Assembly: GCA_030539285.1 (NCBI GenBank) | Contig: JAUNSH010000030.1 | Coordinates: forward strand, 1-35,323 | Length of the DNA stretch: 35,323 bases | Direction of reading: 5' to 3' | DNA from: Eubacteriales bacterium | GTDB taxonomy: Bacteria > Bacillota > Clostridia > Oscillospirales > Oscillospiraceae | Part shown: piece after piece, positions 9,319 to 35,323 of the stretch | Layout: every line of letters begins with the position of its first letter | Numbering within the stretch: the first letter of the stretch is position 1 | Made by a program: the position numbers and the translations under genes | The notes under the pieces: model-generated | What the model was told of the DNA's origin: nothing | Databases searched by the model: none | The model's input: the letters and a program-made list of their open reading frames with translations, nothing else

Positions 9319-9327
9319 ATCAGCCTT

Positions 9328-11070: not shown

Positions 11071-11071
11071 T

Positions 11072-12010: not shown

Positions 12011-12016
12011 ATCCGC

Positions 12017-12052: not shown

Positions 12053-12071
12053 CTGTCGAAATAGAATGGCG

Positions 12072-16028: not shown

Positions 16029-16086
16029 TGCATTAGACGTCCGGTGGAGATTCAAAATTCTGCCGGTAAAAACAGGAGGTCATCAT

Positions 16087-17025: not shown

Positions 17026-17037
17026 TCAGCTTTTGTC

Positions 17038-17096
17038 CCCGCCGGCGGGTTTGTCCGGCGGGATATGGGCGGAGGAGCATCCGCTCCTCCGCCTTT
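17038..17096 (+). promoter_or_regulatory. Two tandem hairpins between DUF1177 and aroM
   Basis: CCCGCCGG pairs with CCGGCGGG (17038-17062). A perfect 11-bp stem, GGCGGAGGAGC with its complement around ATCC (17068-17093), follows and ends in TTTGCG. These may act as a leaky terminator or an mRNA stabiliser that sets the first gene above the rest. Confidence 0.7.
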
Positions 17097-17119
17097 GCGC
17101 GACAGAAAGGAGATTCAAT

Positions 17120-17794: not shown

Positions 17795-17808
17795 GGAGAA
17801 TGGATAGC

Positions 17809-18750: not shown

Positions 18751-18760
18751 GGGAAAACGT

Positions 18761-19420: not shown

Positions 19421-19432
19421 GGAGACAGCATT

Positions 19433-20518: not shown

Positions 20519-20533
20519 CCCCGGGAGCAGGCA

Positions 20534-21370
20534 ATGGATCCAATTATTCGTAAAATAGAGGAATTGATCCTGACCCGGTCAGAAGCACAGGCAGCGGATT
20601 ATATTATTGATCATCTGGACACCATCGGCCTGTGCACCTCCCGGGAGGTGGCTTCCGCGGTGGGTGTCAGCGATACCTCGGTGATCCGCCTGATCCGCAA
20701 GCTGGGATTCGACAGTTATACCCAGTTCCGAAACGCCATGAATTCCCGTATTTCCAGTCAGTATCAGCGGGAGCCATCGGAAAAGCGGCAGGGAGAAGCG
20801 GACTCTGGCCGCGGCATGGTCGATGCCCTCAGCGGCATGATTTTTGAAAATCTGAGAAGGACCTTTCAGCGGCTGGATGATGCTACCATCCATCAGATCG
20901 TGGATGTTCTGCTGCAAAGCCGGCACAAGTATATCGCCGGCTTCCACACCACCTCCGGCTGCGCCCAGTATATGGCCACCCGTCTGGTGAAGCTGCTGCC
21001 CCATGTGATCCCTGTTGTGAATGCGGACAGCAGCTCGGTGGAGGCGATCCTCGATATCGGTCCGGAGGACTGCCTGGTGGTGTACAGCTTTCTGCGGTAT
21101 TCCAGGATCAACGCACCCCTGATGAAGCTGGCAAAGCAAAACGGCGCCCGCGTGATCCTTGTCACCGACAGGGTCTCCTCCCCGCTGGCCCGAAAGGCAG
21201 ACATTGTGCTGCTGACGCCCATTGCCAGCGCGGATCAGTCCTATTCCTACGCGGCGCCGCTGGCCGTTTCGGAGATCATACTGATGAAGCTGATCGCCCG
21301 CAGCGGCACCGACGGAGAGGCCCGGATGCACCGGGTGGAAAGCCTTTTGGAGCATCCCGATCTGTCCTGA
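20534..21370 (+). CDS. MurR/RpiR-family transcriptional regulator
   Basis: A 278-residue regulator. Residues 1 to about 77 form the RpiR N-terminal helix-turn-helix (SREVASAVGVSDTSVIRLIRKLG); a SIS sugar-phosphate-binding-type domain covers about 115-245 (HKYIAGFHTTSGCAQYMA, DCLVVYSFLRYSRI, VILVTDRVSSPLA). In this setting the SIS pocket probably senses a pathway intermediate rather than a sugar phosphate. It starts 15 bp after the DUF917 gene, so it is cotranscribed and likely controls its own operon and the divergent OPT gene through the palindromes at 15940 and 16018. A terminator follows. Confidence 0.92.
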   Translation: MDPIIRKIEELILTRSEAQAADYIIDHLDTIGLCTSREVASAVGVSDTSVIRLIRKLGFDSYTQFRNAMNSRISSQYQREPSEKRQGEADSGRGMVDALSGMIFENLRRTFQRLDDATIHQIVDVLLQSRHKYIAGFHTTSGCAQYMATRLVKLLPHVIPVVNADSSSVEAILDIGPEDCLVVYSFLRYSRINAPLMKLAKQNGARVILVTDRVSSPLARKADIVLLTPIASADQSYSYAAPLAVSEIILMKLIARSGTDGEARMHRVESLLEHPDLS

Positions 21371-21432
21371 CCGGTTGGGGATACAACCGCCTGAACAGCG
21401 TTGCGTAAGGGAAATTGATGCGGGGATAAACA

Positions 21433-21470
21433 AAGCCCGGCAGGCGGTTGACGCTTGCCGGGCTGCTTTT
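21433..21470 (+). terminator. Terminator of the DUF1177-RpiR operon (repeat copy 1)
   Basis: AGCCCGGCA and TGCCGGGCT form a 9-bp stem around a 13-base loop, followed by GCTTTTT. The 32-base block 21433-21464 recurs exactly at 21828-21859. Confidence 0.85.
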
Positions 21471-21525
21471 TCTTATGGAAAACGGACGGGCAATGGCGAA
21501 TACAGTAGCCTTGGAGGTGACGCGT

Positions 21526-21723
21526 ATGCTCGCAGCCGTATGGCTGATGCTCAGCACGCTGCTGTATTCCCTGCAAATAAGCACTGGTTCCTTCCCAAAG
21601 CCGCTGACAGAGGAAGAAGAACGCCACTATCTGGCACTGGTCCAGCAGGGCGACCTGGAAGCGAGAAATGTCCTCATAGAACGCAACCTGCGTCTGGTGG
21701 CCCACATTATGAATAAGAGATAA
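21526..21723 (+). CDS. sigK: Sporulation sigma factor SigK, N-terminal part (gene interrupted)
   Basis: This is the first part of the late mother-cell sigma factor. The 65-residue frame starts with a hydrophobic pro-sequence-like segment (MLAAVWLMLSTLLYSLQ), then the SigK N-terminal consensus FPKPLTEEEERHYLALVQQ and RNVLIERNLRLVAHI of region 2.1. It stops at TAA 21721 two codons after the shared TAAGA core. The true gene continues at 32415: joining codon AAG (21715-21717) to AAA at 32418 gives AHIMNKKYYAQTADQEDLIS in frame, which is the expected SigK sequence. GGAGGTGA lies 5 bases before the start. The chromosomal form makes no SigK; DNA rearrangement is needed. Confidence 0.93.
   Translation: MLAAVWLMLSTLLYSLQISTGSFPKPLTEEEERHYLALVQQGDLEARNVLIERNLRLVAHIMNKR
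21714..21718. other. Left attachment core (attL) of the sigK-intervening element
   Basis: TAAGA is the only sequence shared with the right break at 32414-32418 in the register that restores the sigK frame. The crossover of the serine recombinase should fall within these five bases. CACATTATGA occurs just to the left (21703-21712) and again 67 bases on, at 21770-21779, inside the element. Confidence 0.75.
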
Positions 21724-21827
21724 CGCCCGCGGAAACTTTCGGTGGCGGACAAACGGCGGATTTTGTCCGCACATTATGACAGAGTCGAGAAGAAACACTG
21801 GAACGCAGTAATGATGTAAATAAGGAC

Positions 21828-21859
21828 AAGCCCGGCAGGCGGTTGACGCTTGCCGGGCT
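21828..21859 (-). terminator. Terminator-like hairpin after the ABC permeases (repeat copy 2)
   Basis: An exact second copy of the 32-base hairpin at 21433-21464. Here it lies downstream of the leftward ABC operon. The minus-strand side lacks a good T-run (TTGTCCTTATTT), while the plus side reads TTATAGTTTTG. Another 9-bp hairpin (GCGGACAAA with its complement, 21745-21770) lies between it and attL. Confidence 0.65.
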
Positions 21860-21887
21860 TATAGTTTTGTTGTTGGTGAGAAACAGA

Positions 21888-22757
21888 TCAGCCCTTGACG
21901 GAGCCGGCGGTAACGCCCTTGATGATGGATTTGCTCAGGAGGATGTAGACGATCACGACGGGCAGGATGGCCAGCAGGATGAACATATACACCTTGCCCA
22001 TATCGAACTTGGAGTAGTCGGCGCTGCGCAGCTGGGCGATCATCAGAGGAACGGTCTTCATCTCGGCCTTGTCAAGCAGCAGGGCGGGCATGAAGTAGTT
22101 GTTCCAGGACTGGACGAAGTTGAAGATCAGCTGCACCGCGATGGCGGGCTTCAGCATGGGCAGGATGATGGTGTTGAAGGTGCGGAACTCGCCGGAGCCA
22201 TCCACACGGGCGGCGTCGATGATCTCCATGGGCAGGACGCTTTCCATGTACTGCTTCATATAGAAGAAGACAACGGGAGCGGCGATGCCAGGGACGATCA
22301 GGGGGATGTAGCTGTTGGTCCAGCCCAGCTTCACGCACATCTGGTAGAAGCCGGTAGCGGAGACCTGGGTGGGGATGACCATGACGGCCATGATGAAGGT
22401 GAAGGCCACCTTCTTGAGCTTAAAGTCATAGGCATGGATGCCGTAGGCCGTCAGAGCGGAGAAGTAAGTGGACAGCAGGGCGGTGGAGGCCGCGATGATG
22501 AAGCTGTTCAGCATACCTCTGGGGATGTTGATGGAAGCGTCTGTCCAGGCGTTGTACAGGTTCTTGAAGAAGTAGTTGCTGGGCAGGAGCTTGAAGCCGC
22601 CCTGCAGATCCGCGTTGGAGCGGGTGGCGTTGACGAACAGCATATAGAAGGAGAACAGGCACAGCACGGACAGGAAGATCAGGATGACATACACCGCAAA
22701 GCGGCTGGCTTTCAGCTTGCGTCTGGCGCTCAGGTTTTCTTTGGACAGTTCGTTCAT
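21888..22757 (-). CDS. Carbohydrate ABC transporter permease (MalG-type)
   Basis: A 289-residue inner-membrane subunit of a sugar ABC importer with six hydrophobic segments. The EAA loop that docks the ATPase is clear (EIIDAARVDGSGEFRTFNTI), as is the family C-terminal pattern with a long final helix and SIIKGVTAGSVKG. The start has AAGGAGGG 7 bases upstream. It follows the partner permease by 12 bp. With the solute-binding protein and the GH94/GH1 genes it most likely imports cellobiose or short cello-oligosaccharides. No ATPase gene is in the cluster, so a shared MsmK-like ATPase elsewhere is expected. Confidence 0.93.
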   Translation of the reverse strand: MNELSKENLSARRKLKASRFAVYVILIFLSVLCLFSFYMLFVNATRSNADLQGGFKLLPSNYFFKNLYNAWTDASINIPRGMLNSFIIAASTALLSTYFSALTAYGIHAYDFKLKKVAFTFIMAVMVIPTQVSATGFYQMCVKLGWTNSYIPLIVPGIAAPVVFFYMKQYMESVLPMEIIDAARVDGSGEFRTFNTIILPMLKPAIAVQLIFNFVQSWNNYFMPALLLDKAEMKTVPLMIAQLRSADYSKFDMGKVYMFILLAILPVVIVYILLSKSIIKGVTAGSVKG

Positions 22758-22769
22758 ATTCTTCCCTCC

Positions 22770-23711
22770 TTAGTCCTTCTTGGTCAGGGAGCGGTAAACC
22801 AGGATGCTCAGCAGACCCGTGATGATGAAGATGATCACGGAGATGGCGCCGGACATACCGTAGTTCTTGCTGGTCTTCAGATAGTTGTTCAGGTACATGA
22901 TCAGGGTCGTGGAGGTGCGGTTGGGCGTGCCCATACCGTTGGTCAGAACCTGAGGCACATCGAACATCTGCAGGCCGCCGATCAGGGCAGTGATGATGGT
23001 GTAGACCAGGATGGGGGTCAGCAGGGGCAGGGTGACCTTAAAGAAGGTCTGGGTGGCGCTGGCGCCGTCAATGTTGGCGGCTTCAAACATATTCTGGTCG
23101 ATGCCCATGATGCCAGCCATCAGCAGAATGGTGGTGTTGCCGAACCACAACAGGAAGTTCATCAGGCAGATGAGGCCCCGAACCGTAATTTTAATGGAGA
23201 AGAAATCGATTGGCTGATCCGCAATGCCCATCTGCATCAGCAGCTGGTTCACCGGGCCGACATTGGAGAACAGGGTGAAGAACAGCATGGAGAATGCGGA
23301 GGCCATGATCAGGTTGGGCATATAGATGACGGTCTTGAAGAACTGCTGTCCCTTGATATTCAGCCGGTAGCTGGTGAAGAAGATGGCCAGCAGCAGCGCA
23401 ATGACGATCTGCGGGATGGCGCCGCCCAGCCACAGCACGACCGTGTTACCGGCGTACTTCAGGATATCAATGGTTCCGTTGGCGTCCGGGGTGAAGAGCT
23501 TGATGTAGTTGGCCAGGCCCACGAAGTTGGGGCCAACCTGCTTCAATCCGGAGCGGTAGTTCTCGAAGAAGCTGTTGTAGATGGTCAGGATCAGGGGATA
23601 GAGGTTAAAAATGGCGTAGGTGATGAAAAAGGGTGCGATGAACAGGTAGCCCCACTTGGCATAGCTGATGCCTTTTCGTTTGGTGGGCGCTTTATCACGC
23701 AGTTGATTCAT
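22770..23711 (-). CDS. Carbohydrate ABC transporter permease (MalF-type)
   Basis: A 313-residue membrane subunit with six hydrophobic segments. The first helix region (YAKWGYLFIAPFFITYAIF) and the EAA loop (MFEAANIDGASATQTFFKVT) are typical of MalF/UgpA-type sugar permeases. ATG 23711 is used because AAGGAGG is 8 bases upstream; the longer frame from 23747 begins before this ribosome site. It pairs with the MalG-type permease downstream and is preceded by the binding-protein gene with an attenuator-like hairpin between them. Confidence 0.93.
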   Translation of the reverse strand: MNQLRDKAPTKRKGISYAKWGYLFIAPFFITYAIFNLYPLILTIYNSFFENYRSGLKQVGPNFVGLANYIKLFTPDANGTIDILKYAGNTVVLWLGGAIPQIVIALLLAIFFTSYRLNIKGQQFFKTVIYMPNLIMASAFSMLFFTLFSNVGPVNQLLMQMGIADQPIDFFSIKITVRGLICLMNFLLWFGNTTILLMAGIMGIDQNMFEAANIDGASATQTFFKVTLPLLTPILVYTIITALIGGLQMFDVPQVLTNGMGTPNRTSTTLIMYLNNYLKTSKNYGMSGAISVIIFIITGLLSILVYRSLTKKD

Positions 23712-23781
23712 AAGTACATCCTCCTTGCTTTCTTGTCTTCGATTCAAACCGTGGAAACACGTTCTGAAGCCAGGACAAGAT

Positions 23782-23817
23782 AATTTTAAAATGGGGCAAG
23801 GCTCTCGCCTTGCCCCA
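23782..23817 (-). terminator. Attenuator-like hairpin between binding-protein and permease genes
   Basis: A perfect 11-bp stem (TGGGGCAAGGC with its complement, TCTC loop, 23792-23817) is followed on the minus strand by TTTTAAAATT. Partial termination here would give more binding protein than permease, the usual stoichiometry. Confidence 0.8.
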
Positions 23818-23848
23818 CAGGTTGCGTTATGTCAGTTTTTACAAGTCA

Positions 23849-25201
23849 TCAGGGAGTGACGATCTCGGGGTACTTCTCGTTGATGTACTTGTAGTAGTTG
23901 GCCATTGCCTCTTCCTCGGTGACAGCACCGTCGCAGTACTCTCTCCAGAAGCCCTGCAAGCCTTCGGTCAGCAGCTGATCGTAGATGGTCTTGTTCTCGA
24001 ACTTGATGTTCTTAGCCAGCTCAACGAACACAGCCACGTCGTTCTGGCCGCCCAGGAAAGCGTTGCCGTACTCGGGATCCTCAGCGAACTTGGCGTTGAC
24101 AGCCTGGTTGTTGGTGAACTGAGCCTCGTTGGCGATCAGGTTGGAGCAGACTTCCTCATCGTTGATGAAGGTGTCCATGATGTCAGCCAGCATGGTGGGG
24201 TTGTCAGAACCGGTAGCAGCCAGCAGCCAAGTGCCGCCCCAGAAGTGAGCCTGAGGACCCTGGCAGATAGCCCAGTCGCCGGAGCAGCCCTTATCGGGAT
24301 CCTGAGCGTTGCCCATGCAGAAGTTGAAGTACCAGGCGGGTCCGAAGTAGCACATGGTCTTGCCGTCGGCGAACATCTGAGCGGTGCACTCGTCAGACCA
24401 AATATCGCAGGTCAGGGTGTAGCCGTTGTCGGAGAAGTCCTTGGCCTGAGCCTGCCATGCCTTGATGGCGTCGTCCAGAACCAGCTCGCCATTGTCGTTG
24501 ACCAGAGGAGCGGTGCCGTTGTTGGAGAACACGCGGAAGGTCTCAGCCTCGGAGGAGGTCATGTAGTAGCCCTTAGCCTTGGCGTCAGCAGCCACAGCGT
24601 TGAACTTGTCCCAGCTGTCCAGCTTAGCCTGAACTTCGGCGGGATCAGAGGTGCCCAGAACGGCCTCAGCGATGGAACGGCGGTAGATCAGAGCGGAGGG
24701 GCAGCACTGGAAGGAAACGCCCTTGACGGTTCCGTTGGGATCAGAAGCGGCCTGCACAGTGTACTCATAGGTGTTGGAGAAATCGGTGACGCCCAGAGCG
24801 GTGATATCCTGGGTGAACTCGGAGTCGGTGTACTTCAGGATGTAGTCTGCCTCAGCCAGGAACATGTCGATCTTCTCGTCATCGGCGACATTTTCCTGAT
24901 TCAGCAGAGCCTCGTCCAGCTTATCCTGGTAGACGCCGCCGTCAGAGGGGTTGATGATCCAGTTGACGGTGATGCCCTCAGGAACTGTGTAGTACTTCTC
25001 GAAGAAGCCCTTGAACTCCTCGTTCCAAGCGTAGATGTTGAAGACCTTGCCTTCCTCAGCGGGAGCGGCTTCGGTGGCGGCGGGGGCGGCAGCCTCAGTT
25101 GCGGCGGGAGCCTCGGTAGCGGGGGCAGCAGTGGAACCGCCGCAGGCAGCCAGACTCAGGACCATAACCAGAGCCAGCAGCAGAGAGAATGCTTTTTTCA
25201 T
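23849..25201 (-). CDS. Sugar-binding lipoprotein of ABC importer
   Basis: A 450-residue extracellular solute-binding protein. The lipoprotein signal peptide ends at a lipobox with Cys20 (LSLAACGG), followed by a low-complexity Ala/Thr/Glu/Pro linker of about 30 residues (TEAPAATEAAAPAATEAAPA) that spaces it from the membrane. The mature part begins KVFNIYAWNEEFKGFFEKYY, as in the carbohydrate-binding (family 1) group. ATG 25201 has AAGGAGG 8 bases upstream; the longer frame from 25255 reaches into the gap after lacI. Several Trp and Cys residues in the C-terminal lobe (WSDECTAQMF, HFWGGTWLL) may shape a sugar pocket. Ligand inferred from the cargo enzymes: cellobiose-like beta-glucosides. Confidence 0.93.
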   Translation of the reverse strand: MKKAFSLLLALVMVLSLAACGGSTAAPATEAPAATEAAAPAATEAAPAEEGKVFNIYAWNEEFKGFFEKYYTVPEGITVNWIINPSDGGVYQDKLDEALLNQENVADDEKIDMFLAEADYILKYTDSEFTQDITALGVTDFSNTYEYTVQAASDPNGTVKGVSFQCCPSALIYRRSIAEAVLGTSDPAEVQAKLDSWDKFNAVAADAKAKGYYMTSSEAETFRVFSNNGTAPLVNDNGELVLDDAIKAWQAQAKDFSDNGYTLTCDIWSDECTAQMFADGKTMCYFGPAWYFNFCMGNAQDPDKGCSGDWAICQGPQAHFWGGTWLLAATGSDNPTMLADIMDTFINDEEVCSNLIANEAQFTNNQAVNAKFAEDPEYGNAFLGGQNDVAVFVELAKNIKFENKTIYDQLLTEGLQGFWREYCDGAVTEEEAMANYYKYINEKYPEIVTP

Positions 25202-25266
25202 TTTAGTTTCCTCCTTAATGTTTGTTACGGGATGATTCCCGAAAACATACGACATTGTGGGTTTCT

Positions 25267-26268
25267 TTATATCTGCCTGACGGAAGCCCCCTCCAGCAGC
25301 GCGCCGGGAATGAGGATCCTGTCGGTCAGGGTGGTTTTGGGACGCTCGATCAGGCGGATCAGCTGGGACGCGGCGGTGGCACCCAGAGCCTTGGTATCCT
25401 GGGAATAGGTGGTCAGATGCAGCACCTTAGCCAGATGGATCCCGTCATAACCGACGACGGAAATATCTTCCGGGATCCGCAGTCCCGCTTCATTCAGGAC
25501 GTTCGCACCGCCGATATAAGAATAATCGTCCGGGAAGAGAATGCAGCTGGGACGCTCCGGTAAGGCCAGCAGCTCCCGGGTGACCTGGGCGCAGCGGTCA
25601 GGGTCGTGATAGACACATTCCCGTATATATTCCGGCGGGATCTCCAAGCCGAGGTCTTCGCAGGCCCGGTAGAAGCCGGTCAGACGGTTTTCGGTAACAG
25701 CGGTTCGCTCGCCGTGCAAAAACGCGATCTTGCGGTGACCTTTCTCATATACATAGTGCACCAGGGCCTCTACCCCGGTAACATTGTCGGACACCACTGC
25801 CAGACGATTGTTGAACACATGGTCAATGGTGACCAGGGGAATGCCGCTGTCCACCAGCTCCCGGACACGGGGATCGTTAAAGTCCACACAGGCGATCACC
25901 ACGCCGTCCACGCCCCGGTAGAGGCAGTGCTGCAAATACGTCGTGGGACGACCGCCCACATTGTGGTTGATAAAGGTAATGTCATAGCCGTGGCTTTCCG
26001 CTTCCACCTTGAAGCTTTCCAGCACCGCGGAAAAATACTCATGGGTCAGGCCGCTTCGCCGCTCGTCTACAAACAGAACACCCAAATGATAAGTGCGGTT
26101 GGTTTTCAGCGCCCGGGCCGCGGAATTGGTCAAGTAGCCCAACTCGTCCGCCACGGCACAGATCCTGCTCCGGGTCTCCTCCGCGATATCCGGCTGACCG
26201 TTCAGCGCCTTGCTGACTGTGGCGACGGAAACGCCGCAGCGTCTGGCGATATCCTTCATCGAAACCAT
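25267..26268 (-). CDS. LacI-family transcriptional regulator
   Basis: A 333-residue LacI/GalR regulator. The N-terminal HTH and hinge are clear (MKDIARRCGVSVATVSKALNG, then NSAARALKTNRT), followed by a periplasmic-binding-protein-like effector domain (LGVLFVDERRSGL, VDGVVIACVDFNDPRV, ISVVGYDGIHLAK). ATG 26268 is chosen because AAGGG lies 9 bases upstream; ATG 26277 abuts the ribosome site. It sits between the leftward ABC genes and the rightward GH94/GH1 operon and is the obvious local controller, binding CG-centred operators near both promoters. Effector likely cellobiose or glucose-1-phosphate, inferred only. Confidence 0.93.
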   Translation of the reverse strand: MVSMKDIARRCGVSVATVSKALNGQPDIAEETRSRICAVADELGYLTNSAARALKTNRTYHLGVLFVDERRSGLTHEYFSAVLESFKVEAESHGYDITFINHNVGGRPTTYLQHCLYRGVDGVVIACVDFNDPRVRELVDSGIPLVTIDHVFNNRLAVVSDNVTGVEALVHYVYEKGHRKIAFLHGERTAVTENRLTGFYRACEDLGLEIPPEYIRECVYHDPDRCAQVTRELLALPERPSCILFPDDYSYIGGANVLNEAGLRIPEDISVVGYDGIHLAKVLHLTTYSQDTKALGATAASQLIRLIERPKTTLTDRILIPGALLEGASVRQI

Positions 26269-26301
26269 GGGACGCATCCCTTCTTTTTGCCTGGCTCATT
26301 T

Positions 26302-26351
26302 CTTAATCGTTTTCGTAGCTTCACTATACTCCATGTTGCATGAAAAAGCAA
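26302..26351 (-). promoter_or_regulatory. Promoter of the lacI-ABC operon with LacI-type site
   Basis: On the minus strand TTGCTT (26346-26351) and TATAGT (26323-26328) are 17 bp apart. Just downstream, CGAAAACGATTAAG (26302-26315) resembles a LacI/CcpA-family operator half, suggesting autoregulation. Confidence 0.72.
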
Positions 26352-26506
26352 GTGATATTTTTCTCAAAGGAGGCAATCTGACCAATATTTGGTGAACCTG
26401 TACATTGTCTCTCCGAAAAACTGTGAATGTTGCACACGAAATTTTCCGAAAATAGGCCGGACACATCATTTGTATTACTATTTTTTTATGAAAAGCAAAA
26501 AAGGGC

Positions 26507-26568
26507 TTGCATTTCTTTGAAATATCCGCTATTCTAAGGATATTAGCAATCTTAAACGTTATCGATAT
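26507..26568 (+). promoter_or_regulatory. Promoter and operator of the cellobiose phosphorylase operon
   Basis: TTGCAT (26507-26512) and TATTCT (26530-26535) are 17 bp apart. Downstream of the start site, TTAAACGTTATCGATA (26552-26567) has the central CG and flanks of a LacI-family operator and contains the palindrome TATCGATA. The gap 26352-26506 is AT-rich and shows no gene. Confidence 0.72.
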
Positions 26569-26598
26569 TGTTACATTTTTAACATCAGGAGGAAGCAT

Positions 26599-29016
26599 AT
26601 GCAGTTTGGTTACTTCGATGACCCCCGGCGGGAATATGTGATCACCACCCCTGCCACCCCTCTGCCCTGGATCAACTACTTAGGCAGCGAAGATTTCCTC
26701 GGCATGATCTCCAACACCGGCGGAGGCTACTGCTTCTACCGGGACGCAAAATTGCAGCGGCTTCTGCGCTACCGCTACAATGCTGTCCCCGGCGACAACG
26801 GCGGCAGATTTTACTACATTAAGGAGGCGGGCAAGCCAGCCTGGAATCCCGGCTTCCTGCCCACCAGGACGGAGCTTGACCATTACGAGTGCCGTCATGG
26901 CATGGGCTACACCACCTTCGACAGCGCGAAAGACGGCCTGAACGCCAAGATGACCTTCTTTGTGCCCGTGGGCGAAAACTGCGAGCTGCACGATCTGGTA
27001 CTGACCAACGAAAGTAAGGAAACCAAGACCGTCCACGTCTGGGGTGTCATGGAATGGTGCCTGTGGAACGCGGTGGATGACAGCACCAACTATCAGCGCA
27101 ACCTGAACATCGCCGAGTCCGAAGTGGAGGACGGCGTGATCTACCACAAGACCGAGTACCGGGAGCGCCGGGATCACTACGCCTACTACGGCGTGAACCA
27201 GAAGGCCGCAGGCTGGGACACCGACCGAAACACCTTCCTGGGCCACATGGGCGACTGGTCTGATCCCCAGCTGGTGCGGGAGGAGCGCAGCGCTTTCTCC
27301 AAGATCGTGGGCTGGTATCCCATCGGCTGTCAGCGTATGGAAGTGACTCTGGCTCCAGGCGAGAGCTGGCGGGCCACCTTCGTGCTGGGCTACGGCAAGA
27401 ATCCCAGAGATCAGAAGTTCATCGCCCCCGGCGTCATCCGCAAGGACACCGCAAAGGCTGTCATGGCAAAATTCGCCACCCCCGAAGCTGTGGACACAGC
27501 CCTTGTTGAACTGGCCGCCTACTGGGATAAGCTGCTGGGCAACTACCAGCTCTCCTCCGGCAATGAAAAGCTGAACCGCATGGTGAACATCTGGCACCAG
27601 TACCAGTGCATGGTCACTTTCAACATGAGCCGCTCCGCTTCTTATTATGAGACCGGCACCGGCCGGGGCATGGGCTTCCGGGATTCCTGCCAGGATCTGT
27701 ACGGCTTCATGCACATCATCCCCGACCGGGCACGGGAGCGCATCATCGACATCGCTTCCATCCAGTTCGCCGACGGCTCCACCTACCACCAGTACCAGCC
27801 CCTGACCAAGCGTGGCAACAACGACATCGGCGGCGGCTTCAACGACGACCCCCTGTGGCTGGTGGGTGCGGTGTGCGCCTATATCAAGGAGACCGGCGAC
27901 TTCTCCATCCTCGATCATCCCACTCCCTTTGATAATGTCCCCGGCACCGAGGTGCCCCTGCTGGAGCATGTCCGCCGCAGCGTAAACTTCACCCTCAATA
28001 ACCTCGGCCCCCACAAGCTGCCCCTGATCGGACGGGCGGACTGGAACGACTGCCTGAACCTGAACTGCTTCTCCGAGGAGCCGGGGGAGAGCTTCCAGAC
28101 CTTCGGCCCCAGCGAAGGCCCCGTGGCGGAGTCCGTGTTCATCGCGGGTATGTTCGTCAAATACGGCGGCGAGTATGCGGCTCTGTGTGACCAGCTGGGC
28201 CTTAAAGAGGAAGCTGAAACCATCCGCAAGGCCGTTGTCGACATGGAAGCCGCCGTTCTCAAGGACGGCTGGGACGGCCAGTGGTTCCTCCGGGCCTATG
28301 ATGCAAACGGCAATAAGGTGGGCAGCCACGAGTGCAAAGAAGGTCAGATTTTCATTGAGCCTCAGGGCTTCTGCACATTGGCTGGTATCGGCAAGGATAG
28401 CGGCGAGGGCCTGAAAGCCATGGAATCCACCCGCGCTCGCTTACTGGGCGAATATGGCGTGGAGCTTCTGGATCCCTGCTACACGGAGTACCACGTGGAG
28501 CTGGGCGAAATCTCCTCCTATCCTCCCGGATTTAAGGAAAACGGCGCGGTGTTCTGCCACAACAACCCCTGGATCGTCTGCGCCGAGGCCACCCTGGGCC
28601 GGGGCAACGAGGCCTTCGACATCTACCGCCGCATCTGCCCCGCCTATCTGGAAGAAAAGAGCGAGATCCACGAGACCGAGCCTTATTGCTACTCCCAGAT
28701 GGTGACGGGCCGGGCTTCCGGCAACCCGGGCCACGCCAAGAACAGCTGGCTCACCGGCACCGCCAGCTGGACGTTCCTGTCCATCTCTCAGGCGATCCTG
28801 GGCATCTACCCGGACTACAACGGTCTGCGCATCCAGCCCTGCATTCCTGACGACTGGGACGAGTACACCGTCACCCGGAAGTTCCGGGGCTGTGAATACA
28901 CCATCCATGTCCATCGTGGTGAGAAAAAGGGCATTACCGTCAACGGCACGCCCATTTCCGGTGAAGTCGTCCCCCTGATGGCAGGACCCACCGCGCAGGT
29001 TGAGGTGGTACTGTGA
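26599..29016 (+). CDS. GH94 cellobiose phosphorylase
   Basis: An 805-residue cytoplasmic glycoside phosphorylase of family GH94. It splits cellobiose with phosphate into glucose-1-phosphate and glucose, saving one ATP. The N-terminal beta-sandwich begins MQFGYFDDPRREYVI. The (alpha/alpha)6 barrel contains the family motifs YQPLTKRGNNDIGGGFNDD and GRADWNDCLNLN, with Asp484 as the likely general acid. The C-terminal part has HNNPWIVCAEATLGRGNEAF and GTASWTFLS. Length is normal for cellobiose phosphorylases rather than the far longer cyclic-glucan enzymes. AGGAGG lies 6 bases upstream. Its stop codon overlaps the GTG start of the GH1 gene, so both are cotranslated. Confidence 0.93.
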   Translation: MQFGYFDDPRREYVITTPATPLPWINYLGSEDFLGMISNTGGGYCFYRDAKLQRLLRYRYNAVPGDNGGRFYYIKEAGKPAWNPGFLPTRTELDHYECRHGMGYTTFDSAKDGLNAKMTFFVPVGENCELHDLVLTNESKETKTVHVWGVMEWCLWNAVDDSTNYQRNLNIAESEVEDGVIYHKTEYRERRDHYAYYGVNQKAAGWDTDRNTFLGHMGDWSDPQLVREERSAFSKIVGWYPIGCQRMEVTLAPGESWRATFVLGYGKNPRDQKFIAPGVIRKDTAKAVMAKFATPEAVDTALVELAAYWDKLLGNYQLSSGNEKLNRMVNIWHQYQCMVTFNMSRSASYYETGTGRGMGFRDSCQDLYGFMHIIPDRARERIIDIASIQFADGSTYHQYQPLTKRGNNDIGGGFNDDPLWLVGAVCAYIKETGDFSILDHPTPFDNVPGTEVPLLEHVRRSVNFTLNNLGPHKLPLIGRADWNDCLNLNCFSEEPGESFQTFGPSEGPVAESVFIAGMFVKYGGEYAALCDQLGLKEEAETIRKAVVDMEAAVLKDGWDGQWFLRAYDANGNKVGSHECKEGQIFIEPQGFCTLAGIGKDSGEGLKAMESTRARLLGEYGVELLDPCYTEYHVELGEISSYPPGFKENGAVFCHNNPWIVCAEATLGRGNEAFDIYRRICPAYLEEKSEIHETEPYCYSQMVTGRASGNPGHAKNSWLTGTASWTFLSISQAILGIYPDYNGLRIQPCIPDDWDEYTVTRKFRGCEYTIHVHRGEKKGITVNGTPISGEVVPLMAGPTAQVEVVL

Positions 29017-30368
29017 TCTTTCCGGAGAGTTTTGTATGGGGCGCGGCATCCAGCGCCTACCAGATCGAGGGCTATTCCACCGCGGACGGCGGCGGCATCT
29101 CCATTTGGGACACCTTCAGCCACACCCCCGGCAAGATCGCCTGGGATGACACCGGGGACATTGCCTGCGACGCTTACCACCGGTATGCCGAGGATATCGC
29201 CCTCCTGCGTCAGTCCGGGGCAACAGCCTATCGGTTTTCCGCCAGCTGGGCCAGGATCGACCCCAATGCCGATGGGAATTGGAACGAAGCGGGTCTTGCC
29301 TACTATGACCGGGTCGTAGACACGTGTCTGGAAAACGGCATCACTCCCTACATGACCCTGTACCACTGGGAACTGCCCCAGGCAGCTCAGAACCGGGGCG
29401 GGTGGCAGACCCGGCAGACCGCCGAGGCCTTCGCCCGGTACGCGGGGATGATGTCTGACCACTTCCGGGGCCGGGTGAAGCACTATTTTACCCTGAATGA
29501 GCCCCAGTGCACCGTCTCGCTGGGACACCAAAGCGGTGTCCATGCCCCGGGAAAACAGCTGGATCTGGCCGGACAGTTCGGTGTCCTCGTGAATCAGCTG
29601 CTGGCCCACGGCCTGGCCCAGCGCGCCATTCGGGCGGCTGACCCGGAAGCTGTGGTGGGAATTGCCTCCACGGGACGGCTGTGTTATCCGGAGCGGTACA
29701 CGCCGGAGGATATCCGGGCCGCCCGGGAGGCTACCTTCGCAGTCTCCGACGATGATTGGGCCTTTACCCACCACTGGCTGCTGGACCCCATCTGTCTGGG
29801 CAGGTTCCCGGATTGCGGGGGTACTGCTTTGGAAGAGCTTGTGCGGCAGGTCACCCCGGAGGAAATGGACATCATCCACACCGTCCCCGATGTGCTGGGC
29901 TATAACATCTACAACGGAAACGCTGTCCGGGCCGACGGAACAGGCTATGCCTATGCGTCCCGATACCCCGGTTTCCCCCGCACCGCGATGAAATGGCCGG
30001 TGACCCCGGAAGTGATGAACTGGGGTGTGGGCTTTTTGCAGGAGCGCTACGGTCTGCCCTGCTACATCACAGAAAACGGCCTGAGCTGCAATGACCGGGT
30101 CTATCTGGACGGGCAGGTCCACGATGCCGACCGGATCGACTTCCTGGCGCGGTATCTTACCTGTCTTGGGCAGGCTGTGGAACGGGGCATGGACGTCCGG
30201 GGATATTTCCACTGGTCGCTGACCGACAATTTCGAGTGGAGCAACGGCTATGGCGAACGCTTTGGGCTCATCTACATTGATTATCCCACCGGCCGGCGTA
30301 TCCCCAAGGACTCCTTCCGTTGGTACGGCCAGGTCGCCCGCACCGGAAGCGTTCCCCAATCGCTGTAA
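29013..30368 (+). CDS. GH1 beta-glucosidase
   Basis: A 451-residue cytoplasmic family-1 glycoside hydrolase that cleaves beta-glucosides such as cellobiose. The N-terminal FVWGAASSAYQIEG signature is present. The acid/base is Glu163 in TLNEP and the nucleophile is Glu354 in YITENG; the C-terminal WSLTDNFEWSNGY matches the glucose-binding loop. It lacks any signal peptide. Phospho-beta-glucosidases of the same family are possible, but the neighbouring ABC importer and phosphorylase argue for unphosphorylated substrate. The GTG start overlaps the GH94 stop (GTGA) with GAGGTG 5 bases upstream. A very strong terminator follows. Confidence 0.94.
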   Translation: MIFPESFVWGAASSAYQIEGYSTADGGGISIWDTFSHTPGKIAWDDTGDIACDAYHRYAEDIALLRQSGATAYRFSASWARIDPNADGNWNEAGLAYYDRVVDTCLENGITPYMTLYHWELPQAAQNRGGWQTRQTAEAFARYAGMMSDHFRGRVKHYFTLNEPQCTVSLGHQSGVHAPGKQLDLAGQFGVLVNQLLAHGLAQRAIRAADPEAVVGIASTGRLCYPERYTPEDIRAAREATFAVSDDDWAFTHHWLLDPICLGRFPDCGGTALEELVRQVTPEEMDIIHTVPDVLGYNIYNGNAVRADGTGYAYASRYPGFPRTAMKWPVTPEVMNWGVGFLQERYGLPCYITENGLSCNDRVYLDGQVHDADRIDFLARYLTCLGQAVERGMDVRGYFHWSLTDNFEWSNGYGERFGLIYIDYPTGRRIPKDSFRWYGQVARTGSVPQSL

Positions 30369-30445
30369 ATAGGTACGGCGGAACTCAGCCAATTCGTACG
30401 GAACTTGGTTACTGCGCTTTCCACTTTTCAGCATACCATCATTTT

Positions 30446-30491
30446 GTCACTCAAATGCAGATCGTGCAGGTCTGTATTTGAGTGACTTTTT
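30446..30491 (+). terminator. Terminator of the GH94-GH1 operon
   Basis: A 16-bp stem with one G-T wobble (GTCACTCAAATGCAGA with its complement) and a 9-base loop is followed by TTTTT. It separates the cargo from the recombinase genes. Confidence 0.9.
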
Positions 30492-30578
30492 GTTTCTGCC
30501 AGTCCTGAAGGATATGCTGCTGACCGGATTTTTGCAATCACTCGGCGGCAGCGGGCGCAGGAAACGGTGCGCCTCGGC

Positions 30579-30604
30579 ATGATGAGAAAAGGAACGCATA
30601 CGGT
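30579..30604 (+). promoter_or_regulatory. Possible SigE-type (mother-cell) promoter of the recombinase unit
   Basis: CATACGGT (30597-30604) fits the SigE -10 pattern CATACAnT at seven of its positions, with ATG in place of the -35 ATA 16 bases ahead of ATACGGT. It lies just before the 54-residue gene. Weak evidence; the rest of the gap 30492-30622 shows no recognisable gene. Confidence 0.3.
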
Positions 30605-30622
30605 ATTACGAGGTGAGCGCGG

Positions 30623-30787
30623 ATGAACGAGGTGCAGCAGGAGATTTTGTGCGTCCTATTGCAGACGCTTTTGGATAAGGAACTGATCACGCAGGACATT
30701 CACGACAAATCCCGGAATAAGATCCTCGGCACATTGGACTTGCCGGACTTTTTCTGCGATACTGAGGGCAGAAGGGAGGATTTTTAA
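30623..30787 (+). CDS. Small protein coupled to recombinase (candidate excision factor)
   Basis: A 54-residue acidic protein starting MNEVQQEILCVLLQTLLDKE, a single predicted amphipathic helix followed by a short second helix and a charged tail (DTEGRREDF). AGGTGA lies 6 bases upstream. Its stop overlaps the recombinase start (TAATG), so the two are translated together. I do not recognise the family. A small protein tied to the recombinase of a skin element invites the idea of a recombination directionality factor, as a small protein is known to be needed for skin excision in C. difficile. That role is inference from context only. Confidence 0.7.
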   Translation: MNEVQQEILCVLLQTLLDKELITQDIHDKSRNKILGTLDLPDFFCDTEGRREDF

Positions 30788-32454
30788 TGGATGTACGAAA
30801 GATTCGGGAGGAACTGCGCATGGGAAGGTCGATTTATGACCTTCCCCTCCGGGTGACATTTTATGCCCGGGTGTCCACAGACCAGGACGAGCAGATCAAC
30901 AGTCTGGAAAATCAGGTGCAGTATTACACGGAGCTGATCCAGAGTAAGTCCAACTGGCGTTTTGTGCCGGGGTACATTGACGAGGGCATCTCCGGCGGCA
31001 CCACCAAAAAGCGAGACGATTTCAATCGCATGATCCGGGATGCCAAAGCCGGGATGTTTGACTTCATCATCACCAAAGAGATCTCCCGGTTTTCCCGCTC
31101 TACCCTGGACAGCATCCAATACACCCAGGAGCTGTTGGAAAACAATGTGGGGGTGCTGTTCCAGAACGACAACATTAACACCCTGGATACGGACAGCGAA
31201 TTCCGGCTGGTCATCATGGCGGGCGTTGCCCAGGATGAGATCCGCAAGCTCTCCGAGCGGCTGAAATTCGGCTTCCGGCAGGCCATCAAAAACGGTCATG
31301 TGCTGGGAAACGACAAGCTCTACGGCTACGACAAAAAGGACTGCATTCTGACCATCAATGAAGGGGAAGCGGAGATTATCCGCATTATCTTCGACCTCTA
31401 TGCCAACCGGAAGCTGGGCACCCGGAGTATCTCCAAAAAGCTCACGGAAATGGGCTACACCAGCCGGGAGGGGAATGCTTTCAATACCCTGACCATTCGA
31501 CATATTTTGGAGAATCCCAAGTATAAGGGCTGGTATTGCGGCAATAAGACCTCCAGTCTTGACTACCGCACCAAAAAGAAAGCCTTTCTGGATGAAAGCG
31601 AGTGGGTCATGTATCCCGACCCGTCCATTCCCGCCATCGTCCCGGAAGAATTATGGGATCGTGCAAATGCCCTGTATAAGAAAAGGAGAGAAGAAACCAT
31701 GAGTCACAGCAGCGGCGTCAGCTTCCAAAACCGGTATCCCTACAGCGCAAAAATCATCTGCGAGGAGCACAACACAACCTTCCACCGGCAGGTGCTGGAA
31801 AACAAAAAAGGGAAGCAGGAGGTCTGGCAGTGCAAGGTCTACCGCACCCACGGCCGGGCGGCCTGCTCCGCGCCCCAGATCCGCAGCAGCGAGCTGGACT
31901 TGATCCTCAGCCAGATTTTTACGGAGCTGATGAAGGATAAGAACGCAATCATCGATTCTCTGGTGACGGTGCTGCGGAGTGTTCCCAAAGAGGTGGACTA
32001 TGGGAAACTCCGCAGCCGGGTGCAGGAGCAGATCGACGAGGTGGCATGCAAGAAGGACCGCCTGCTGGATTTGAGTATTGCCGGTGCCTTGACGGTGGAG
32101 GAATTCAAGCAGCGAAATGATGCCTTCAATGTCCAAATCTGCCAGCTGGAAACCCAGCTGGCGGCCATCCGGCAGGAAGAAGAAAAGTGTGCGGACAGCA
32201 ATCTGAATATTGCGGAAATCCGCCGGGTTCTGGACAAGGAACTGCGCTTTGAAGGGGGCATCAACACCGCTCTGGTTGCCTCCATTCTGGATAAAATTGT
32301 TGTAAAAAAGGAGAGTACAAAGGAGAAAATCCATTTGGATGTTTATCTAAAATTGGGACAGCAGTATGAGGCGGTATATGCTATGAAAAAAGGCTCTGCA
32401 AGCATCATTCGTCTAAGAAATACTACGCCCAGACCGCCGATCAGGAGGATCTGA
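30787..32454 (+). CDS. Large serine recombinase of the sigK-intervening element
   Basis: A 555-residue large serine recombinase of the SpoIVCA/TnpX type. The resolvase catalytic domain has Ser30 (YARVSTDQ) and the helix region EISRFSRSTLDSIQYTQ. A recombinase domain follows (about 170-270; IRHILENPKYKGWY), then a zinc-ribbon-like region (ICEEHNTTFHRQVL, CKVYRTHGRAACSAPQ) and a coiled coil (about 390-470). Its last codons run through the TAAGA core into sigK sequence, so the final 13 residues are encoded by the target. After excision the frame would continue on the circle with a different C-terminus. It most likely catalyses excision to rebuild sigK during sporulation. Confidence 0.93.
   Translation: MDVRKIREELRMGRSIYDLPLRVTFYARVSTDQDEQINSLENQVQYYTELIQSKSNWRFVPGYIDEGISGGTTKKRDDFNRMIRDAKAGMFDFIITKEISRFSRSTLDSIQYTQELLENNVGVLFQNDNINTLDTDSEFRLVIMAGVAQDEIRKLSERLKFGFRQAIKNGHVLGNDKLYGYDKKDCILTINEGEAEIIRIIFDLYANRKLGTRSISKKLTEMGYTSREGNAFNTLTIRHILENPKYKGWYCGNKTSSLDYRTKKKAFLDESEWVMYPDPSIPAIVPEELWDRANALYKKRREETMSHSSGVSFQNRYPYSAKIICEEHNTTFHRQVLENKKGKQEVWQCKVYRTHGRAACSAPQIRSSELDLILSQIFTELMKDKNAIIDSLVTVLRSVPKEVDYGKLRSRVQEQIDEVACKKDRLLDLSIAGALTVEEFKQRNDAFNVQICQLETQLAAIRQEEEKCADSNLNIAEIRRVLDKELRFEGGINTALVASILDKIVVKKESTKEKIHLDVYLKLGQQYEAVYAMKKGSASIIRLRNTTPRPPIRRI
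32414..32418. other. Right attachment core (attR) of the sigK-intervening element
   Basis: Second copy of the TAAGA core, inside the last codons of the recombinase frame and directly before the sigK continuation. Confidence 0.75.
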
Positions 32455-32924
32455 TCTCCATCGGCACCATCGGCCTTATCAAAGGCATCACCACCTTCGA
32501 CCCATCCAAGGGGGCAAGACTGGCAACCTACGCCGCCCGGTGTGTGGAAAATGAGATTCTGATGTACTTCCGTTCCCAGAAGAAGAGCGCCCAGGATGTA
32601 TCGCTGTCGGACTACATCGACACCGGGGCGGATGGGGCGCCGCTGGCGCTGATGGATGTGGTGGCGGAGGACTGCGACCTGTTGGAGCAGGTTTGCAGCC
32701 GGGAAATGGCCCAGCAGCTCCGGCGGGCCATGGATAACTGCCTGACGGCCCAGGAAAAACAGGTGATCATCCTACGCTACGGCCTGAACGGCCAGCCGCC
32801 CAAACGCCAGCGGGAGGTGGCCCAGATCACAGGCATCAGCAGAAGCTATGTATCCCACCTCGGCTATTGTAAACGATTGACCGTTAGGAAATCGCTTCAA
32901 ACTGTGCTGAATTCAGCTGTTTGA
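32415..32924 (+). CDS. sigK: Sporulation sigma factor SigK, central/C-terminal part (broken again)
   Basis: This is the continuation of sigK without a start of its own. From AAG 32415 it encodes KKYYAQTADQEDLISIGTIG (region 2.2), ATYAARCVENEILMYFR (regions 2.3-2.4, promoter -10 contacts), a linker, and region 4 with LTAQEKQVIILRYGLNG and QREVAQITGISRSYVS. The expected next residues of the recognition helix (RIEK and about 20 more) are missing. After TCC at 32854-32856 the frame reads HLGYCKRL and on to TGA 32924, antisense to the second recombinase. So region 4.2 is cut by a second insertion. Full SigK needs both interruptions removed, or this strain cannot make it. Confidence 0.92.
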   Translation, partial: KKYYAQTADQEDLISIGTIGLIKGITTFDPSKGARLATYAARCVENEILMYFRSQKKSAQDVSLSDYIDTGADGAPLALMDVVAEDCDLLEQVCSREMAQQLRRAMDNCLTAQEKQVIILRYGLNGQPPKRQREVAQITGISRSYVSHLGYCKRLTVRKSLQTVLNSAV

Positions 32925-34476
32925 AGCGGAATTTGATATAAAGCTGTTTGTCCTCGCTGAGTTCGATTCTCTCAATCAGGCTGACCAGCAGTTCCCGGCT
33001 GGCACAGGCGCTTTCCAAGAAACGCTGAACCAGTGCTTTTGCTTCATCCTCCGCTTTGGCGGGGGATTCTTTTTTCCTCTCCAGTTCCCTGAGCTGATCT
33101 TCCAGCCTGGCTCTATCGGATTTCACTTTGAGATAGATCCGCTGGAAGTCATCCTCGTTCAGAATACCGGAGAGCTTATCCATGTACATCCGATCCAGGT
33201 TGGCAGTCATGGACTCGATCTTGCCCTGCAAGGTCTGAATCTCCCCTTCGGTGCTGTCCGCGGCTCTGGCTGCTTCCACGGCTTTCTGCGCCATTGGCAG
33301 CAGCGTATCCGCATTGAGATACGCCTGACAGACTTCCCGAACTTTGGCAAGCACAGCCTCTGTGACGGTCTGCTCCTTGATGGAGTGGCAGGTGCAGACT
33401 CCGGCTTTGGTAAACCTCTGATAGGTGCGACAGACGAAGAACAGCCGTTCCTCTCCGGCGGCATTCTTGCGGTTCAGTGTTGCCAGAGGATAGCCGCACT
33501 CGTGGCAGAAAATCAACCCCTTCAGTAAGAAGTCATAGGTTCTGCTCCGGGTGTGCTTGCGGCTTTCCACCAGCAGGCGTACCTTGCGAAAGGTTTCGGC
33601 ATCTACCAGAGGTTCATGGGTTCCCTCTACCACCACCCAGTTTTCTCTGGGCTGTTTCAGACACTTCTTCGATTTGTAACTGATCTTTACCATGCGTCCC
33701 TGAACCATATTACCGATATAGGTTTCGTTCTGCAACATCTCCGAAATCCGTTCACTGGACCACAGACCGGCGTAGGGGCCTTTTCTACCCATATTCCACC
33801 CACAATAAGTTGCTGGTGTTGGAACGCCCTCCTCATTTAGTGTGGCGGCGATTTTTCGACAGCTCACTCCATCCAGCGCCATGGCGAAAATTCGCCGCAC
33901 GATGGGCGCTACTTCCTCGTCGACGACGATTTTATTCTTCTCTGTGGGATGCATCTTGTAGCCATACATGGGCTTGCCGCCGATGAAATGTCCCTTGCGC
34001 TGCTTATCCCGTTTGACAGACTTGATCTTCTTGGAAATGTCCTTGGCATACATGTCGTTCATGATAGCCCGGAAGGGAGTAATATCATTGGCGGTGGATT
34101 CCACGCCGGTGTCGATGCCGTCCAGCAGGGAGATATACCGCACACGCTTTTCCGGGAAGTACCGCTCCATGTAGTGACCGGTCATGATGTAGTCACGGCC
34201 CAGTCGGGACAGGTCCTTGGTGATGACCATATTGACCTTTTTGGCTTCAATATCCGCGATCATCCGCTGGAACGCCGGACGGTCAAATGTCGTACCGCTG
34301 TAACCGTCATCAATATAGGTGTCGTAGACGGATAGCTTATGCTGTTTCACAAATTCATCCAGAAGGGAATTCTGGTTGGTAACGCTCTGGGAAGGGCCTT
34401 CGCTTTCATCCTCCTTTGATAACCGAATGTATTTTGCCACATGGTAAGCCATGGGGTCGCTGATTTCTAAGAACAT
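32884..34476 (-). CDS. Large serine recombinase of the second element (TnpX-type)
   Basis: A 530-residue large serine recombinase, unlike the first in sequence. The catalytic domain has Ser20 (YIRLSKEDE), VITKDLSRLGRDYIMTGHYME, and the TnpX-like FPEKRVRYISLLDGIDT. A recombinase domain follows (about 160-260). The zinc-ribbon is clear (LIFCHECGYPLATLNRKN, then CRTYQRFTKAGVCTCHSIKE), followed by a long coiled coil (about 390-480). AAGGAGGT lies 6 bases before ATG 34476. It points toward the left end of the element; its stop is about 30 bp from the sigK break, as expected of a recombinase beside its attachment site. Confidence 0.94.
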   Translation of the reverse strand: MFLEISDPMAYHVAKYIRLSKEDESEGPSQSVTNQNSLLDEFVKQHKLSVYDTYIDDGYSGTTFDRPAFQRMIADIEAKKVNMVITKDLSRLGRDYIMTGHYMERYFPEKRVRYISLLDGIDTGVESTANDITPFRAIMNDMYAKDISKKIKSVKRDKQRKGHFIGGKPMYGYKMHPTEKNKIVVDEEVAPIVRRIFAMALDGVSCRKIAATLNEEGVPTPATYCGWNMGRKGPYAGLWSSERISEMLQNETYIGNMVQGRMVKISYKSKKCLKQPRENWVVVEGTHEPLVDAETFRKVRLLVESRKHTRSRTYDFLLKGLIFCHECGYPLATLNRKNAAGEERLFFVCRTYQRFTKAGVCTCHSIKEQTVTEAVLAKVREVCQAYLNADTLLPMAQKAVEAARAADSTEGEIQTLQGKIESMTANLDRMYMDKLSGILNEDDFQRIYLKVKSDRARLEDQLRELERKKESPAKAEDEAKALVQRFLESACASRELLVSLIERIELSEDKQLYIKFRFKQLNSAQFEAIS

Positions 34477-34973: not shown

Positions 34974-35323
34974 TCATAATTCAAGACTGCATTTCAGTGC
35001 GGTGTTAACCTGCTTCATTTGGGAATCGGAGAGCGATCCGATATAGCCCAATAAGCGAGATTTGTCAAGTGTGTGAATCTGCTCCAGCAGAACGAGAGAG
35101 GGGATTCGAGCGTACATTCCGGGGATATGGTCTAAGAACACATGGGTGGGTAACTTCGCTTTGGTGGCCGTCCTGCTCGTCAGGGCCGAAACAATGATCG
35201 TTTTGGAGTGCTTATTGCCGACATCGTTCTGAACCACCAGAACAGGGCGAATACCGCCCTGTTCACATCCCAGATGCGGTTCGAGATTTGCGTAATAAAT
35301 ATCACCACGGTGATACTTCTGAG
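34974..35323 (-). CDS. MazF/PemK-type endoribonuclease toxin (5' end outside window)
   Basis: The C-terminal 115 residues or so of a MazF-family mRNA interferase, cut by the window edge. The family N-terminal strand (RGDIYYANLEPHLGCEQ) and the GGIRPVLVVQNDVGNKHS motif are present, followed by TIIVSALTSR and the C-terminal LEQIHTLDKSRL. MazF cleaves RNA at specific short sequences and is held by an antitoxin, whose gene should lie just upstream, outside the window. In this setting it probably stabilises the mobile element. Partial on the 5' side. Confidence 0.93.
   Translation of the reverse strand, partial: QKYHRGDIYYANLEPHLGCEQGGIRPVLVVQNDVGNKHSKTIIVSALTSRTATKAKLPTHVFLDHIPGMYARIPSLVLLEQIHTLDKSRLLGYIGSLSDSQMKQVNTALKCSLEL

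What the first reader, a model, noticed from the sequence alone, without database searches (positions are those of the whole stretch)
21526..32924. sigK split by a 10.7-kb skin-like element carrying a cellobiose-use locus
The N-terminal 64 codons of SigK (21526-21717) and its continuation (from 32415) are on the same strand, each broken at a TAAGA core. Joining them there yields AHIMNKKYYAQTADQEDLIS, an uninterrupted SigK frame. The DNA between holds a serine recombinase and, unusually, a full metabolic island (ABC importer, LacI, GH94, GH1) rather than prophage genes. Skin elements are known in B. subtilis and C. difficile; one whose cargo is a regulated sugar pathway is new to me. The cargo would be lost only from the dying mother cell.
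Basis: partly seen in the sequence, partly recalled or inferred. Interest (0 to 1): 0.95.

Follow-up and report, generated by a model that had tools for sequence, protein, structure and literature searches.

The report
Sporulation gene split by excisable cassettes
In this gut bacterium a key spore-formation gene is cut apart by what look like removable DNA cassettes, one carrying genes for eating a plant sugar, and relatives carry such cassettes at up to three fixed places in the same gene.

Summary
The split sigK is real. The window's 10,703-bp element (site A) sits between codons 62 and 63 and carries an ABC sugar importer, LacI, GH94 and GH1 plus its own serine recombinase. After codon 209 (32855) SigK runs into another element with an unrelated recombinase; the native tail lies off the contig. 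In 101 genus genomes (hand tally) sigK is interrupted at three fixed sites: A in 17, B (a B. subtilis-like AATG core) in 18, C in 13, with 11 double. The isolate Anaeromassilibacillus sp. An200 appears to have all three. Joined genes stay open under the same purifying selection as intact ones. Recombinase A relatives abut sigK in 73 of 80 loci. A conserved small ORF, a candidate directionality factor, precedes the recombinase in 72 of 74, with a CATA element upstream in 70 of 72. Relatives with uninterrupted sigK carry the sugar locus elsewhere, so it is swapped-in cargo. Excision was not observed. This is a new variant of skin elements.

The parts
21526..21711 (+). sigK 5' piece N (codons 1-62), with pro-sequence-like N terminus
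21703..21740 (+). attL of site A (..CACATTATG|AA|TAAGAGATAACGCCC..); shared dinucleotide AA at 21712-21713
   Evidence: same boundary in other site-A genomes read there (G029 is an exception with an odd N end)
21712..21883 (.). left end of element A, shared with relative G084's element
   Evidence: 21701-21860 = G084 C24, 82% identity
21888..22757 (-). cargo: ABC sugar permease
   Evidence: PF00528
22770..23747 (-). cargo: ABC sugar permease
   Evidence: PF00528
23849..25255 (-). cargo: extracellular solute-binding protein (by position and lipoprotein-like start; no Pfam hit at 1e-5)
25267..26277 (-). cargo: LacI-family regulator
   Evidence: PF00356+PF13377
26599..29016 (+). cargo: GH94 phosphorylase (cellobiose/cellodextrin-type, inferred)
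   Evidence: PF17167
29013..30368 (+). cargo: GH1 beta-glucosidase
   Evidence: TIGR03356 above cutoff
30597..30605 (+). CATACGGTA, -10-like element of sigmaE/sigmaK type upstream of the small ORF
30623..30787 (+). 54-aa conserved small ORF overlapping the recombinase start; candidate recombination directionality factor
30787..32454 (+). large serine recombinase A; its frame ends 40 nt inside the sigK piece
32403..32430 (+). attR of site A (..CGTCT|AA|GAAATACTACGCC..); AA at 32415-32416
32415..32855 (+). sigK middle piece M+C (codons 63-209)
32844..32880 (+). attL of site C (AGCTATGTATCC|CACCTCGGCTATTGTAAACGATTG)
   Evidence: same type of end
32884..34476 (-). large serine recombinase C of a second element; other end and sigK tail off the contig
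34974..35321 (-). PemK/MazF-like gene, cut by contig end, presumably inside element C
   Evidence: PF02452

Best explanation
sigK here is a docking gene for developmentally excised cassettes. Each cassette has its own large serine recombinase and entered sigK at one fixed site. In vegetative cells and spores the gene stays in pieces and the cassette's genes (here importer, regulator, GH94, GH1) are inherited and usable. In the sporulating mother cell a sigmaE/sigmaK-type promoter is inferred to switch on a small ORF (candidate directionality factor) and the recombinase; attL and attR recombine at AA, the cassette leaves as a circle, and sigK is joined. In this genome a second cassette at site C must leave too before full-length SigK can be made. 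Shown: fixed sites, pieces in order and strand, att sequences, open joined frames, purifying selection, a recombinase family that sits at sigK, swapped-in cargo. Inferred: excision itself, its timing, and the roles of the small ORF and the CATA element.
For: Repeated boundaries at sites A, B and C. 17, 18 and 13 of 101 genomes occupied at A, B and C, 11 doubly (hand tally). 73 of 80 site-A recombinase loci abut sigK. 17 of 18 joined split genes have no internal stop; the 18th has one at my own join codon. Median dN/dS is 0.135 for split-split and 0.135 for intact-intact pairs; split G036 against intact G064 has dN 0.002, dS 0.16. An attP-like junction exists. A small ORF precedes the recombinase in 72 of 74 loci; a profile from 24 of them finds the other 48 of 48 and 0 of 48 shuffled copies. 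CATA lies upstream of it in 70 of 72 against 6.3 +/- 2.3 in shuffles. SpoIIID-like gene present. No second sigK found.
Against: No reads, PCR or transcripts. The sigK tail beyond site C was not found in this 84%-complete genome (0 matches, up to 1 mismatch). The small ORF has no known-family match. A full sigmaE-consensus score upstream of it is barely above shuffles (8.06 against 7.52, sd 0.74), and the window's own promoter lacks a clear -35. Several split genomes miss a piece (M not found in G034, G032, G053; G029 has an odd N end and its M on another contig; G005 has only N and part of the recombinase), so some sigK copies may be dead or badly assembled. The uninterrupted gene of G040 has an in-frame stop. 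Seven of 80 recombinase-A loci do not abut sigK, five of them not at a contig end.
Confidence: 0.85

Rival explanations
1. Ordinary integrative islands that use sigK merely as a conserved attB. Excision is occasional and serves horizontal movement, not development; lineages carrying them sporulate only after rare loss or not at all.
For: Both recombinase orientations occur (44 abut M, 29 abut N); cargo is diverse and swapped; closely related species differ in presence (G036 versus G064).
Against: No relaxase, phage or transfer gene recognised among the genes of the window element; purifying selection on the joined gene equals that on intact genes; CATA element in 70 of 72 recombinase operons.
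Confidence: 0.1
2. The pieces are a dead pseudogene left after insertion in lineages that stopped sporulating.
For: In 17 of 101 genomes no sigK was assigned (hand tally); some split genomes lack a piece; G040 has a stop.
Against: Joined frames open over 486-672 nt in 17 of 18 genes, dN/dS about 0.135 like intact genes; G000 versus G084, both split at A and C, dN/dS 0.065.
Confidence: 0.03
3. Assembly or binning artefact.
For: The window and most relatives are MAG contigs.
Against: Both window pieces lie on one contig with the same boundaries as other assemblies, and records titled as isolates (An200, An100, An82, PC13) show the same kind of structure.
Confidence: 0.02

Closest known systems
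skin elements of B. subtilis and C. difficile (PMC5025042, passages read)
   Same: Insert inside sigK, own large serine recombinase, joining restores the SigK frame; site B here shares the AATG of the AATGA core named for B. subtilis (PMC10745906, passages).
   Different: No phage gene recognised in the window element, sugar-catabolic cargo, a different site (A) from B. subtilis, and two to three elements in one gene. Excision not shown here.
sigK insertion of Bacillus cereus biovar anthracis and relatives (PMC10745906, passages read)
   Same: Non-phage cargo (restriction-modification) and an insertion early in sigK (nt 195), possibly the same region as site A (not tested); two positions used among different strains.
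   Different: The passages read describe one element per gene; cargo differs.
gin element in gerE of Bacillus cereus ATCC10987 (PMC5595907, passages read)
   Same: Non-phage intervening element excised in sporulation by a serine recombinase plus a directionality factor.
   Different: Other gene, three recombinases, other cargo.
nif/hup elements of heterocyst-forming cyanobacteria (PMC4874684, passages read)
   Same: One gene interrupted by several elements at fixed positions with position-specific recombinases (10 genes with multiple elements; Rivularia nifD by four).
   Different: Cyanobacterial heterocyst genes, not sporulation.
Prophages in sigK of Clostridium tetani and Alicyclobacillus (PMC5553647, PMC13141910, passages read)
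   Same: sigK as integration site.
   Different: Phage genomes of tens of kb; one element in sigK in the passages read.

Membership tests
skin (sigK-intervening) element | inserted in the sigK coding sequence, halves on one strand in order | tested here: met
skin (sigK-intervening) element | att sites with a short shared core whose joining restores native SigK | tested here: met
   for this genome only to codon 209, the tail lies beyond the second element
skin (sigK-intervening) element | encodes its own large serine recombinase | tested here: met
   family abuts sigK in 73 of 80 loci
skin (sigK-intervening) element | excision confined to the mother cell during sporulation | not testable with these tools
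   no reads or cultures
skin (sigK-intervening) element | recombinase or directionality factor under sigmaE/SpoIIID control | tested here: inconclusive
   CATA element in 70 of 72; -35 plus CATA pattern in 21 of 72 against 0.1 in shuffles but overlapping terminator-like T-runs; consensus score weak; SpoIIID-like gene present
skin (sigK-intervening) element | recombination directionality factor in the element | tested here: inconclusive
   conserved small ORF in 72 of 74, no family match
prophage | capsid, tail or packaging genes | tested here: not met
   genes of the window element listed; best-ranked phage record 40% identical to the recombinase, none of 425 at 60% or more
integrative conjugative/mobilizable element | relaxase or conjugation genes | tested here: not met
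   none recognised in the window element; other elements only partly annotated
gin-type non-prophage intervening element | non-phage element reconstituting a sporulation gene, but in gerE with three recombinases | tested here: not met
   one recombinase and sigK as target

The most novel reading that the evidence does not exclude
In Oscillospiraceae and relatives one sporulation sigma-factor gene is a hub with three fixed docking sites, each served by its own recombinase family. Host-type operons (sugar use, Hcp/prismane genes, transporters, possibly CRISPR-Cas) are parked there as swappable cassettes, safe because they are cut out only in the doomed mother cell. Making SigK needs two, and in An200 three, coordinated excisions, which may act as a multi-lock timer on late sporulation.
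Probability: 0.6. Interest if true: 0.85.

Novelty: new variant of a known kind. Interest (0 to 1): 0.75.

Why it matters
If excision is confirmed, it extends programmed DNA excision to a large group of gut bacteria, shows one sporulation gene broken at up to three fixed sites, and gives a mechanism by which metabolic operons can ride in an essential developmental gene at little cost. Carriers whose records are titled as isolates (An200, An100, An82, PC13) make regulated excision, element order and the candidate directionality factor directly testable. The recombinases with paired att sites are also candidate new site-specific integrases.

Tried and rejected
TAAGA as core: rejected. A dead fragment pair: disfavoured. 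A phage or plasmid source for recombinase A: no phage or plasmid record reaches 60% identity; the best-ranked are 40% and 31%; of 16 viral-contig relatives I inspected four, and L245 (67%) abuts sigK itself. L112 as an excised circle: its contig start does not recur in that genome and its recombinase match lacks the first 46 residues, so I treat it as a tandem or relic; an attP pattern gave 0 viral contigs. The sigK tail of this genome: not found. A sigma-E -35 in the window: not convincing. My first ORF picker favoured antisense frames and was replaced. G011's 4.3-kb site-B element showed no recombinase by similarity. Literature: seven searches; in their listings and the passages read I saw no report of sigK with two elements or of sugar-catabolic cargo; the library holds open-licence papers only.

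Full report
What is there. The window is all of contig C61 of a 2.78-Mb, 98-contig, 84%-complete genome. One genome of the same genus, G093, has a contig of the same length as a record titled Candidatus Faecousia faecavium, so I place the genus as Faecousia (inferred). SigK codons 1-62 lie at 21526-21711 and codons 63-209 at 32415-32855. Between them are two ABC permeases, a probable binding protein and LacI (- strand), then GH94, GH1, a 54-aa ORF and a large serine recombinase (+ strand).

The join. All 48 genes empty at site A that I read (46 uninterrupted, plus G003 and G016) have LRLV..H..KKYY with no extra residue, 40 of them exactly AHIMKKYY. Across site-A genomes attL reads ATG-AA-.. 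and attR reads ..-AA-G/A-AA.., so only AA after the ATG is generally shared. In locus L112 a right end meets a left end as CCGTTT-AA-TAAGGG, as AA predicts. The element is 10,703 bp.

A second break. After codon 209 the native tail (RIEK..) is replaced by CACCTCGGCTATTGTAAACG.., and recombinase C follows on the other strand. In G084 and G019, with recombinase C 97-98% identical, the missing SigK tail reappears about 5.3 kb downstream behind CATCGTTTACA..ATGTATC. So the window's sigK is doubly interrupted. Its tail was not recovered in this genome.

Three sites in the genus. I tallied by hand 101 genomes (own genome included); the match lists are cut at the weak end, so pieces could be missed. 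A is occupied in 17 (an element end read in 15; G005 and G032 rest on frame lengths), B in 18 and C in 13 (at least one end read in each); A+B in 7, A+C in 2, B+C in 2. 37 genomes have at least one element. 46 are uninterrupted (one, G040, with an in-frame stop; seven others were passed by eye after a strict pattern missed them). One is undetermined (G047, contig end) and in 17 no sigK was assigned. Contigs often break inside elements; M was not found in G034, G032 and G053, and G029 has an odd N end. Site B is the AATG site, like the AATGA core named for B. subtilis (PMC10745906, passages). Recombinases A, B and C are only about 20-29% identical to one another.

Beyond the genus. Of the 80 best relatives of recombinase A (58-88% identity, of 393 found), 44 abut M and 29 abut N in inverted orientation; 7 do not, 2 of them at contig ends. 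Anaeromassilibacillus sp. An200 has N, M and C on one contig separated by A and B elements and an attL of site C; its tail with a matching attR lies on another contig. An100 and An82 show A and C, their N pieces lying outside the stretches I had; PC13 shows A alone, recombinase inverted.

Selection. Joined sequences of 18 split genes (three without tail, one without N) had no internal stop except G044, whose stop is at my join codon. Median dN/dS was 0.135 for 102 split-split pairs (34 saturated pairs dropped), 0.135 for 21 intact-intact pairs, 0.136 for 103 mixed pairs (16 dropped); An100 was left out of these. Split G036 and intact G064 differ by dN 0.002, dS 0.16. The genes behave as functional.

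Control. In 72 of 74 loci with an intact recombinase start (7 of 81 truncated loci left out), a 42-81-aa ORF ends within 45 nt of the recombinase start. A profile from 24 of them finds the other 48 of 48 at E < 1e-3 and 0 of 48 shuffled copies; there is no Pfam or NCBIfam match. CATA lies 14-38 nt upstream in 70 of 72, against 6.3 +/- 2.3 in shuffles; in 62 less redundant sequences 60 against 4.8. That CATA marks sigmaE/sigmaK promoters is recalled. A -35-like match at the right spacing occurs in 21 of 72 against 0.1 in shuffles, but it often coincides with a terminator-like T-run; a fuller sigmaE score was barely above shuffles (8.06 against 7.52, sd 0.74). A SpoIIID-like gene is present (103.4 bits, below the curated 111.5).

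Cargo. The six-gene locus is not element-specific: GH94 relatives occur in 26 of 101 genomes at E <= 1e-120. G094 and G075, whose sigK is uninterrupted (G094 in two copies), carry all six genes on other contigs. In G084 the six genes, 89-96% identical, lie on contig C74; the homologous stretch is 21884-30422 of the window (two blastn pieces), while G084's own sigK element, on C24 and C67, shares only about 160 bp at the left and 30545-32373 at the right. Whether C74 lies in the unassembled middle of that element is unknown. So the cargo sits between conserved ends and looks swapped in. Own genome: one GH94 at that threshold. Other site-A elements carry prismane/Hcp genes (L159, L165), an AAA_21 ATPase (L131), ABC transporters (L120, L166), an FMN oxidoreductase (L152), kinases (L149, L175); L112 has Csd1 and Cas1 (one or two genes per element scanned).

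Known or new. Skin elements, non-phage intervening elements, different sigK sites in different strains, and multiply interrupted cyanobacterial genes are all in print (passages only). I found no report of one sigK with several elements, nor of a sugar-catabolic cargo, in searches. I therefore call it a new variant of a known kind.

Noticed in passing
L261-L276 (16 genomes), e.g. G093:C70: Recombinases 41-44% identical to A run into one conserved stretch at their 3' ends (about RTGHTFKKMIEAYEQG.Q stop in the 16 I read), suggesting another element family targeting the 3' end of a different gene.
   Followed up: partly
L112 (JALFLH010000023.1) about 2950-12913: Junction of a right and a left element end, beside a recombinase lacking its N terminus and cas genes (Csd1, Cas1 by Pfam); contig not shown to be circular.
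   Followed up: partly
G042:C24 (L077) 18063 and 22534: Two sigK N pieces in tandem 4.5 kb apart, both with site-A left ends; a GH94 86% identical to the window's lies just upstream of the first.
   Followed up: no
window 21425-21467 and 21822-21863: The terminator-like hairpin upstream of sigK is repeated inside the left end of the element; the left end also matches upstream of N in G084.
   Followed up: no
G061:C72 9405 (L096) and G063:C63 (L089): Extra sigK pieces with site-A ends in genomes that also have an uninterrupted sigK.
   Followed up: no
upstream of sigK ATG, window 21480-21525 and relatives: Conserved GGAAAA.GGACGGGC..GAATA.AGT block, possibly a mother-cell promoter and SpoIIID box (recalled motifs); CATA itself is not enriched there (7 of 62 against 7.2).
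   Followed up: partly
G044, G059, L167 at site C: Left end of the site-C element makes an immediate stop (TATGTATAG), so the crossover must lie upstream of it if SigK is to be restored.
   Followed up: partly
Flavonifractor sp. An82, G103:C1, tail at 363535 (L189): The sigK tail lies about 103 kb from the C piece if the contigs correspond, implying a very large or composite site-C element.
   Followed up: no
window 16021-21370: Run of + strand genes upstream of sigK (racemase/peptidase-like by eye) ending in an RpiR-family regulator.
   Followed up: no
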